Positions 50,497 to 52,119 of a stretch of DNA of 64,000 bases are shown here, one piece after another; the stretch's first letter is position 1; each line of letters begins with the position of its first letter. The notes under the pieces are model-generated. The model was not told where the DNA came from. It worked only from the letters and a program-made list of their open reading frames with translations, and made no database searches. The stretch spans positions 124,001-188,000 of the forward strand of contig NZ_JACEFB010000005.1 in the NCBI RefSeq assembly GCF_013694095.1, in the 5' to 3' direction. The position numbers and the translations under genes were made by a program. The stretch comes from Thermogemmata fonticola (GTDB taxonomy: Bacteria; Planctomycetota; Planctomycetia; Gemmatales; Gemmataceae).

Positions 50497-50859
50497 TGTG
50501 GCAATTTCTCGACATACCAAATCGGACCATAACACCTCCCCGCCCCATCATAACTAGTTTCTCTGACAAAGCCGCCTCCCAAAGGATACCCACACGCTTT
50601 TGGCATCCCCGCTACCTGGCAATTCTCCTGGCTTGCCGGCTTTGCCTGAAGGTCCTCCATGTGGACAAGTGATAGTCATGCGAATCAGATATGAAGGAAA
50701 CTATCAATACTCGCTTTCTGCGGACGAATTCCATGATAACCCAAGCCTTTATTGAGCCAAGCGAACACGAGAGAATAAATACCCACCAGCGTACCCAAGA
50801 CGTGATTCCTGAAGGCATGCCTCGGGGCAACCGGTAGCGAGTTTTGGAGGGTACAAATC
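50497..50859. other. Intergenic stretch of 363 bases
   Basis: No gene or known element was found. TTGAGC at 50752 followed after 18 bases by TAAATA is a weak promoter candidate for the downstream Csx3-like gene, whose ribosome site GGAGGG precedes the ATG. Confidence 0.45.
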
Positions 50860-52119
50860 ATGGTGTGGTTCATCCAGCGTGATGATATCATCGAGTTTCA
50901 GGACAATCCGGAAGGATTCTGGGCGCCACAGGTCATGTCGCAGCACCCTCTGCGGCTCGAAGCGATGCGGGGCCGGCCGATCTCCATCCGCGGGAAAGGA
51001 GCGGTGTGGATGTATGCCCACGCAGGTGCGATGGCCCAAGCAGCAGGTGCGGCGTCGATCCACCTGAAGGAACTGATCCGCGGGAACTCGTCCGATATCC
51101 GCCAGTGCTTGTGCAAACTCGAAGAGTCACGCCAACATCCAGGCTGCTATCTCTGGCAGATGCAACTCAATTCGGTGCAGGACCTGAAACCCGAAGCCAT
51201 CGAGAGCCTACTAGAACCTACCCTTAAGGAAATCCGAGAGAAACGTCCACGGGAACTCTGCCTGACCGGCAAAGCCCCCGTCACAGTTTATGCCCGCGTG
51301 GCCTGGGAGGCTGTAGCCGCGGGATGCCAGCACCTTTACTGCCTAACGCCGATCCACGATTGTATTCTGGTTTACAGCACTTCGGACTCGCAATTAGGGG
51401 AACGCCTTCCCCTCCCATGGCTAGAGCAATTCGTACCCCAGCCGCAAAAATCCATGATCCTCGGCGTCATCGGGGACCCCAACTCCGGGAAGTCTGTATT
51501 TGCCCGTGCTCTTTATGCTTGTCTCCTGAGCCGAGTCATCTCTCAGCAGCGGCGCTTGTGGATTTTGGATTGCGACGGCCAATCACCCACCCCTGCGTGG
51601 TATCTCAGCCTGCTCCAGGAGGGACATGTCGAACTCGCCCGGCAATATCGCGACATTCTCAAGGAGCGCCGCCGGTGGACCCCCACCATGGAGGATCACT
51701 TTGTCCGCATTCTCCAAGGTCTGCGCCGCTTCTTTGAGTTGGTGATCACGGACCAACCGGGAGGAGACCTCGGAGCGGATCCACCCCAACGGATTCCTCC
51801 AGGACGGGAGCGATTCTTCCAGCAGCTCGATGAATTGATCCTCGTAGCTCGCGAAGGGGAAGTCACCTGGAAACTATGGCATGATGAGTTGGCCCGGCAC
51901 GGCCTGGCCCACCGCTTGCGGGTCATCCTGTATGGCTCCCATCCTGAGGCACCCCCCACGCTGCAACTTACCCGCCAAGGCGATCTGTGGATCGGCACAG
52001 TGCAAGGTCTGGAACGCACGCGCACCAAACAGGAACTGGTCCAAGCGTTTCAGCCCGTCCTGGAGCCGCTCTGGGAAGATTGGCGACAGCGATTGCGCTC
52101 CTGCGTAGCGGAAGTTTGA
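50860..52119 (+). CDS. Tandem Csx3-like domains fused to a P-loop ATPase
   Basis: The 419-aa cytosolic protein carries two segments resembling the CRISPR-associated ring nuclease Csx3 (Crn3). Repeat 1 (about residues 39-72) has RPISIRGKGAVWMYAHAG, repeat 2 (about 102-185) has ELCLTGKAPVTVYARVAWEA, then HLYCLTPIHDCILVYST. Both match the Csx3 strand G(K/R)GPIWL. The conserved Asp-Pro-Arg of Csx3 is not kept, as the second repeat has TPIHD. An ATPase follows: Walker A GDPNSGKS (205-212), DGQSPTPAW (239-247), RRWTPTMEDHF (271-281) and ITDQPGGD (296-303). This order matches Csx3-AAA fusions. GGAGGG precedes the ATG. Confidence 0.62.
   Translation: MVWFIQRDDIIEFQDNPEGFWAPQVMSQHPLRLEAMRGRPISIRGKGAVWMYAHAGAMAQAAGAASIHLKELIRGNSSDIRQCLCKLEESRQHPGCYLWQMQLNSVQDLKPEAIESLLEPTLKEIREKRPRELCLTGKAPVTVYARVAWEAVAAGCQHLYCLTPIHDCILVYSTSDSQLGERLPLPWLEQFVPQPQKSMILGVIGDPNSGKSVFARALYACLLSRVISQQRRLWILDCDGQSPTPAWYLSLLQEGHVELARQYRDILKERRRWTPTMEDHFVRILQGLRRFFELVITDQPGGDLGADPPQRIPPGRERFFQQLDELILVAREGEVTWKLWHDELARHGLAHRLRVILYGSHPEAPPTLQLTRQGDLWIGTVQGLERTRTKQELVQAFQPVLEPLWEDWRQRLRSCVAEV

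What the first reader, a model, noticed from the sequence alone, without database searches (positions are those of the whole stretch)
50860..52119. Tandem Csx3-like domains fused to an ATPase, with no CRISPR locus in view
Residues 39-72 and 102-185 both resemble the Csx3/Crn3 ring-nuclease strand with G(K/R)GPIWL, and a P-loop (GDPNSGKS) plus DQPGGD follows, the order of known Csx3-AAA fusions. Csx3 degrades cyclic oligoadenylate in type III CRISPR systems. Here there are two Csx3-like copies in one chain, the usual Asp-Pro-Arg is replaced (TPIHD), and no cas gene lies within the 64 kb window. The protein may be a signal sensor or anti-defence enzyme outside CRISPR. The recognition of Csx3 is by eye; the CRISPR-independence is inferred only from this window.
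Basis: partly seen in the sequence, partly recalled or inferred. Interest (0 to 1): 0.78.

Follow-up and report, generated by a model that had tools for sequence, protein, structure and literature searches.

The report
Orphan tandem Csx3-like ATPase, CRISPR kin
This gene encodes two worn-out copies of a CRISPR signal-cutting enzyme (Csx3) joined to an ATPase; it stands apart from the CRISPR genes, but it belongs to a family tied to type III CRISPR defence and most likely senses the alarm molecule rather than destroying it.

Summary
The gene is real and intact (50860-52119, 419 aa). Its N-terminal half is two homologous Csx3-like copies (copy 1 vs copy 2, hhalign E 4e-16). Family profiles find A. 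fulgidus Csx3 as their best solved structure, and the AF2 model agrees. The C-terminal half is an intact SIMIBI-type P-loop NTPase (HypB/MinD/CTP-synthase fold), probably not AAA+. It is related to known 'Csx3-AAA' fusions such as Slr7080, which has one Csx3 copy. 'Outside CRISPR' is not supported. The same genome carries two type III loci with GGDD Cas10, and a 38% identical paralog sits beside one. Of 32 genomes holding the family, 29 also hold Cas10, against 20-29% of the phylum. At least 11 relatives lie next to cas genes; the window copy is an orphan. Every ring-nuclease residue (H57, H60, D69, R71, H80) is missing in the window protein, and no member of the family has the H57/H60 pair. 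Four stand-alone Csx3 proteins from sister genomes keep it. I therefore favour a non-cleaving cyclic-nucleotide sensor coupled to the NTPase. Two relatives are fused to a cytidine-deaminase-nucleotidyltransferase that is the operon neighbour in three others: a candidate output. Function is inferred.

The parts
50846..50851 (+). probable ribosome-binding site GGAGGG, 8 nt before the ATG
   Evidence: sequence read directly
50860..52119 (+). gene for the tandem Csx3-like / SIMIBI P-loop NTPase, 419 aa
   Evidence: open reading frame; 34 related loci found in genome contigs; AF2 pLDDT 92.5, pTM 0.90
50860..51093 (+). Csx3-like copy 1, residues 1-78
   Evidence: profile hit to AfCsx3 9-62 (E 6e-5); homologous to copy 2 (E 4.3e-16)
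50989..51009 (+). copy 1 binding loop RGKGAVW (residues 44-50; AfCsx3 S44-G45-R46...I49-W50)
   Evidence: W50-M51-Y52-A53-H54 invariant in the close family
51097..51399 (+). Csx3-like copy 2, residues 80-180
   Evidence: PF09620 sub-threshold hit 106-151; model aligns to AfCsx3 (6yud_H) over 103 of 103 residues, Z 7.8, rmsd 3.2
51265..51285 (+). copy 2 binding loop TGKAPVT (residues 136-142)
51346..51354 (+). TPI (residues 163-165) where Csx3 has catalytic Asp69-Pro-Arg71
51445..52116 (+). SIMIBI-class P-loop NTPase domain, residues 196-419
   Evidence: VIA-align Z 11-12 to HypB, CTP synthase, MinD/ParA, FleN; profile match to Slr7080
51472..51495 (+). Walker A GDPNSGKS (residues 205-212)
   Evidence: six of its residues invariant in 29 relatives
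51568..51594 (+). DCDGQSPTP (residues 237-245), resembles the ParA/MinD D-x-D-P-Q motif
   Evidence: D237, D239, T244 invariant; motif parallel is by eye
51751..51765 (+). Walker B-like DQPGG (residues 298-302)
   Evidence: D298, P300, G301, G302 invariant

Best explanation
The protein is an orphan member of the type III CRISPR-associated Csx3 / P-loop NTPase fusion family ('Csx3-AAA', Csx3'), in a branch with two Csx3-like copies. The two copies fold together like the two halves of a SAVED domain and bind a cyclic nucleotide, most likely a cyclic oligoadenylate made by the genome's Cas10 proteins. They do not cut it by Csx3 chemistry. Binding switches the SIMIBI P-loop domain, which then acts on a partner. 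In the paralog's operon the likely partner is a cytidine-deaminase-nucleotidyltransferase; the window copy works in trans or on another partner. Shown here: homology of both copies to Csx3, loss of the catalytic residues, conservation of the NTPase, association with Cas10. Inferred: ligand, switching, partner.
For: Csx3 homology and relation to Slr7080, E 2.6e-9 over 231 columns. No copy of any of 23 aligned members has the H57/H60 pair (a single His in L085 copy 2 and L087 copy 1); D69 is kept only in copy 2 of two members. Four stand-alone Csx3 in sister genomes keep H57, H60, D69, H80 with R or K at 71. Several genomes with the family have a separate ring nuclease: Csx3 in G012, G024, G037, G048, Csx15 in the same operon in G038. 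Walker A, D-x-D and Walker B are invariant. Cas10 in 11 of 12 and 18 of 20 genomes with the family against 78-112 of 392 in the phylum. Own genome: two type III loci with GGDD. N-terminus matches SAVED domains at Z 8-9 over 150-164 residues. Fusion to the deaminase-nucleotidyltransferase in L097 and L100, adjacency in three other loci.
Against: No ligand or activity was tested. The window copy lies outside any cas locus and has an eroded DPR site (TPI, against S-A/P-R in many relatives), so it may have drifted from cOA binding. SAVED similarity is of fold only; no sequence profile hit. The window copy has no deaminase neighbour. Cas10 co-occurrence is between related genomes, not independent events.
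Confidence: 0.5

Rival explanations
1. It is a ring nuclease after all: the composite pocket cleaves cyclic oligoadenylate without the Csx3 histidines, by metal-independent in-line attack as some CARF and SAVED proteins do.
For: SAVED proteins with ring-nuclease activity exist (CalpL, PMC11417357; viral SAVED, PMC12751052) and the viral one (9r8s) is among the fold matches, Z 8.4. Binding loops GK are kept.
Against: All Csx3 catalytic positions are replaced; sister genomes hold a separate complete Csx3 or Csx15. An intact NTPase is not needed for ring cleavage.
Confidence: 0.2
2. The window copy works outside CRISPR: a repurposed housekeeping or anti-defence regulator that responds to another nucleotide.
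For: Orphan position with no cas gene on the contig and similar orphan copies in other genomes (L063, L080, L084, L085, L089). Lost DPR.
Against: Nearly all genomes with the family also hold Cas10. Orphans do not form a clade of their own. No viral or plasmid relatives found.
Confidence: 0.13
3. A decaying leftover of a lost type III locus.
For: Long branch, eroded copy 2, not at a conserved gene junction.
Against: ORF, ribosome-binding site and every invariant P-loop residue are intact. The protein keeps 38-41% identity to kin along nearly its whole length.
Confidence: 0.12

Closest known systems
Csx3-AAA / Csx3' fusions, e.g. Slr7080 of Synechocystis pSYSA (PADLOC PDLC01045)
   Same: Csx3-like domain followed by the same P-loop domain; profile match E 2.6e-9 over 231 columns; type III association; Slr7080 also has no histidine in the Csx3 core
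   Different: Slr7080 (310 aa) has one Csx3 domain and keeps Asp-Pro-Lys; the window protein has two copies, keeps none of the catalytic residues and lies outside a cas locus
Stand-alone Csx3/Crn3 ring nuclease (AF_1864; PF09620)
   Same: fold and GK/GR binding loop; best solved relative by sequence
   Different: H57, H60, D69, R71, H80 all missing; two copies in one chain; NTPase added
SAVED domains (Cap4, Cap5, CalpL)
   Same: two CARF-like halves in one chain; model aligns over residues 7-178, Z 8-9
   Different: no sequence match; SAVED occurs with other effector domains
SIMIBI NTPases (HypB, MinD/ParA, CTP synthase domain)
   Same: fold of residues 196-419, Z 11-12; D-x-D-x-Q and D-x-P-G-G motifs by eye
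   Different: GDPNxGKS without the deviant lysine of MinD/ParA; 10-18% identity; activity unknown

Membership tests
Csx3/Crn3 ring nuclease (PF09620) | profile match over the curated cut-off | tested here: not met
   window N-terminus 16.6 bits against 21; relatives L071 and L070 pass
Csx3/Crn3 ring nuclease (PF09620) | Csx3 fold / sequence relation to AfCsx3 | tested here: met
   profile E 6e-5; Z 7.8 over 103 residues
Csx3/Crn3 ring nuclease (PF09620) | metal-site and catalytic residues H57, H60, D69, R71, H80 (PMC7371418) | tested here: not met
   A/Q in copy 1 and W/V in copy 2 at H57/H60; TPI for DPR; four sister stand-alone Csx3 keep H57, H60, D69, H80 and R or K at 71
Csx3/Crn3 ring nuclease (PF09620) | cA4 cleavage with Mn2+ | not testable with these tools
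   needs an assay
Csx3-AAA (Csx3') fusion | Csx3 domain followed by the family's P-loop domain | tested here: met
   PADLOC PDLC01045 E 7.8e-7, PDLC01515 E 4e-5; hhalign with Slr7080 E 2.6e-9
Csx3-AAA (Csx3') fusion | lies in a type III cas locus | tested here: not met
   no Cas10, RAMP or Cas1 on contig C5; met for the paralog at C7:85090 and at least 10 other relatives
Csx3-AAA (Csx3') fusion | one Csx3 domain, as in Slr7080 | tested here: not met
   two homologous copies, E 4.3e-16
SAVED domain | two fused CARF-like halves binding one cyclic nucleotide | tested here: inconclusive
   fold Z 8-9, no sequence match; ligand untested
AAA+ ATPase | AAA+ fold with lid, sensor and arginine finger | tested here: inconclusive
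   listed best matches are SIMIBI folds; no AAA+ Pfam model passes its cut-off
Viral anti-CRISPR ring nuclease | encoded by viruses or phages | tested here: not met
   no relative in phage or viral collections; chromosomal contig

The most novel reading that the evidence does not exclude
A catalytically dead tandem of Csx3 copies, shaped like a SAVED domain, is the alarm sensor of an undescribed type III CRISPR effector module. Through its NTPase it controls a cytidine-deaminase-nucleotidyltransferase, with Gfo/Idh, TPP-enzyme and thymidylate-kinase-like partners in some loci. Csx3 would then be a source of sensors, not only of off-switches. The window copy would be a detached sensor of such a module.
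Probability: 0.35. Interest if true: 0.75.

Novelty: new variant of a known kind. Interest (0 to 1): 0.5.

Why it matters
Csx3-AAA fusions are described as putative ring nucleases joined to an ATPase domain of unknown function (PMC9676260, PMC12409355). Here the metal-site histidine pair is missing across the tandem-Csx3 branch and in Slr7080, which argues that these fusions are sensors rather than Csx3-type ring nucleases. Gene fusion to a deaminase-nucleotidyltransferase names a concrete candidate output. Both claims can be tested with two small proteins.

Tried and rejected
Single-sequence searches of PDB gave nothing useful; profiles were needed. Foldseek with the full model returned almost only P-loop NTPase folds, so the N-terminus was modelled alone. 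Foldseek E-values for the N-terminus are weak (best 8e-3). The viral structure library gave no match. Plasmid, phage and viral DNA collections gave no relative. Mobile-element ends were sought around the gene: only chance repeats; GC not unusual. I tried to show an empty site in the sister species. DHS-PfkB-MFS order is kept in G001 but its contig ends right after MFS, and the ABC pair lies on another contig, so insertion is not shown. Orphan and cas-linked copies do not separate on the tree. A phylum-wide search found the family in only 2 of 392 genomes, too few for a formal co-occurrence test. Cas linkage of some relatives is limited by short contigs. A 2020 paper notes a Csx3 domain in other conflict systems (PMC7159879); that architecture was not tested here.

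Full report
WHAT IS THERE. The window holds an intact gene at 50860-52119 (+), 419 aa, with GGAGGG eight bases before the ATG. Its neighbours are ordinary chromosomal genes: a deoxyhypusine-synthase-like gene, a PfkB-like kinase and an MFS transporter before it, an ABC transporter pair after it (names by eye). The genome is a Gemmataceae planctomycete: the same-genus genome G001 shares contig length 97291 with the record 'Gemmataceae bacterium isolate SKYG125'.

ARE THERE TWO CSX3 COPIES? Yes, as homologs. Alone, the window protein is below the Pfam cut-off (16.6 against 21 bits), though PADLOC's Csx3-AAA model matches at 7.8e-7. With relatives the case becomes firm. A 23-row N-terminal alignment finds the five AfCsx3 entries as its five best PDB hits (E 6e-5 to 1e-3) through copy 1. 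A profile of copy 2 plus Csx3-type relatives and Slr7080 finds AfCsx3 at 8e-6, through the Asp-Pro-Arg strand; the added Csx3-type rows help that hit. 15 of 23 members match PF09620 at E<=0.1. More distant tandem fusions exceed the Pfam cut-off: G048 44.5 bits in copy 1 with an intact DPRFGG, G040 31.2 bits in copy 2. Copy 1 against copy 2: E 4.3e-16, score 87; the best of 100 column shuffles scored 7.

STRUCTURE. AF2 with relatives gives pLDDT 92.5, pTM 0.90, and 93.8 / 0.91 for residues 1-196. Residues 196-419 match SIMIBI P-loop NTPases (HypB, CTP synthase, ParA, MinD, FleN) at Z 11-12, rmsd 3-5. The 'AAA' name is therefore probably a misnomer. The N-terminus aligns to SAVED domains over residues 7-178 (Z 8-9, 150-164 residues, rmsd about 4). 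Copy 2 alone aligns to AfCsx3 over all 103 residues (Z 7.8, rmsd 3.2). Foldseek E-values are weak (8e-3 at best), but the list is almost wholly SAVED and Csx3. SAVED domains are known as two CARF-like halves in one chain (established knowledge), so a tandem Csx3 could build a similar composite pocket. That is inference.

CATALYSIS. AfCsx3 needs H57, H60 (Mn2+ site), D69, R71 and H80 (PMC7371418). At these places the window protein has A57 and Q60 in copy 1, and W149, V152, T163 and I165 in copy 2; no histidine stands at the H80 place. None of 23 aligned members has the H57/H60 pair in either copy; single His occur in L085 copy 2 and L087 copy 1. D69 survives only in copy 2 of L090 and L091. 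Many relatives keep the arginine (S-A-R, S-P-R); the window copy does not. Slr7080 has D-P-K and no histidine in the core. Control: stand-alone Csx3 genes in sister genomes G012, G024, G037, G048 all keep H57, H60, D69 and H80, with R or K at 71. So the loss is specific to the fusions, and genomes can hold both kinds. In G038 the ring nuclease Csx15 stands in the same operon as the fusion gene. In contrast, Walker A, D237/D239, K268, D298-x-P-G-G and R311 are invariant in 29 sequences. Selection has kept the NTPase and the binding loop, not the nuclease.

CRISPR OR NOT. The window's contig has no Cas10, RAMP or Cas1 hit. The genome does have type III genes: a type III-B-like cluster at C7:73.7-79 kb and another at C1:594-602 kb, both with GGDD Cas10. 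No Cas1 match was found in the genome. A paralog (38% identity) lies at C7:85090-86340, about 6.5 kb from that Cas10. Of 12 related genomes with a match to the window protein (full-length, partial or distant), 11 hold Cas10; of 20 genomes with tandem members found in the wider collection, 18 do. Background in the phylum: 78 of 392 over the cut-off, 112 at E<=0.001. At least 11 loci carry Cas10, Cmr or RAMP genes beside the fusion gene (L003, L061, L062, L064, L086, L091 weakly, L092, L097, L098, L099, L105). Several others, the window among them, are orphans; orphans are scattered on the tree, so detachment seems to have happened more than once. The window copy does not group with its C7 paralog.

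PARTNERS. In G000 C7, G001 and G038 the preceding gene encodes a protein with a cytidine-deaminase domain (HAE, PCGVC motifs), a nucleotidyltransferase motif and an OB-fold. In two distant relatives, L097 (Kiritimatiellae, 988 aa) and L100 (Treponema, 890 aa), the two proteins are one chain (36-38% identity, E down to 2e-89). A Gfo/Idh gene follows the fusion gene in L003, L064 and L092, and a thymidylate-kinase-like gene occurs in L003 and L097. Among 59 relatives, the full-length deaminase-nucleotidyltransferase occurs only in genomes with the fusion gene; other hits are short, ordinary cytidine deaminases. In G012 a CARF-Lon protease gene and a weakly sigma-like gene stand nearby, recalling the Calp system. 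I found no open-access paper that combines these terms. Two subscription papers that I looked up by DOI are not held, so prior mention cannot be excluded.

HOW IT LIKELY WORKS. Cas10 makes cyclic oligoadenylate on infection; the Csx3 tandem binds it through the kept G-K loops; the nucleotide state of the SIMIBI domain changes; a partner enzyme is switched. Steps shown: homology, residue loss, NTPase conservation, Cas10 association, partner fusion in kin. Steps inferred: ligand, binding, switching, partner of the orphan copy.

VERDICT. A new variant of a known kind.

Noticed in passing
L097:9311-12277, L100:236-2908; L003:7666-9057, L061:2158-3561 (-), L064:2911-4338: A cytidine-deaminase + nucleotidyltransferase + OB-fold protein is fused to the tandem Csx3 / P-loop protein in two phyla and adjacent to it in three planctomycete loci; PADLOC holds no clear model for it.
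   Followed up: partly
L113:20158-21090 (Slr7080, pSYSA): The Csx3-AAA protein of Synechocystis lacks all Csx3 histidines, so its published description as a putative metal-dependent ring nuclease looks doubtful.
   Followed up: partly
L062:11614-15904: Beside the fusion gene in G012: a weakly ECF-sigma-like gene, two unknown genes and a CARF-Lon protease (PDLC01981, E 8.5e-100), like a Calp-type transcription module.
   Followed up: partly
L108, L109, L110, L111, L112: In Patescibacteria and a Pacearchaeota MAG the same P-loop domain is joined to an N-terminal part that by eye looks like a DHH phosphoesterase; the genomes tested had no Cas10.
   Followed up: no
L102:9899-11208 and L103:2066-3375: Identical frame-broken copies with matching neighbours appear in two MAGs labelled as different orders (KatS3mg111 Pirellulaceae, KatS3mg105 Gemmatales): mis-binning or very recent transfer.
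   Followed up: no
L003:4623-6272 (G000 C7): An ISKra4-like transposase gene lies between the type III-B cas10 and the deaminase / Csx3 fusion genes.
   Followed up: no
G000 whole genome: Two type III clusters but no Cas1 match at 97% completeness, and no CRISPR array in the stretches read.
   Followed up: partly
L100:2850-4936: After the Treponema fusion gene comes a histidine-phosphatase plus PEP-synthase-like (PPDK_N) protein; the C7 locus of G000 has a TPP enzyme and a Gfo/Idh oxidoreductase, hinting at a small biosynthetic cassette.
   Followed up: no
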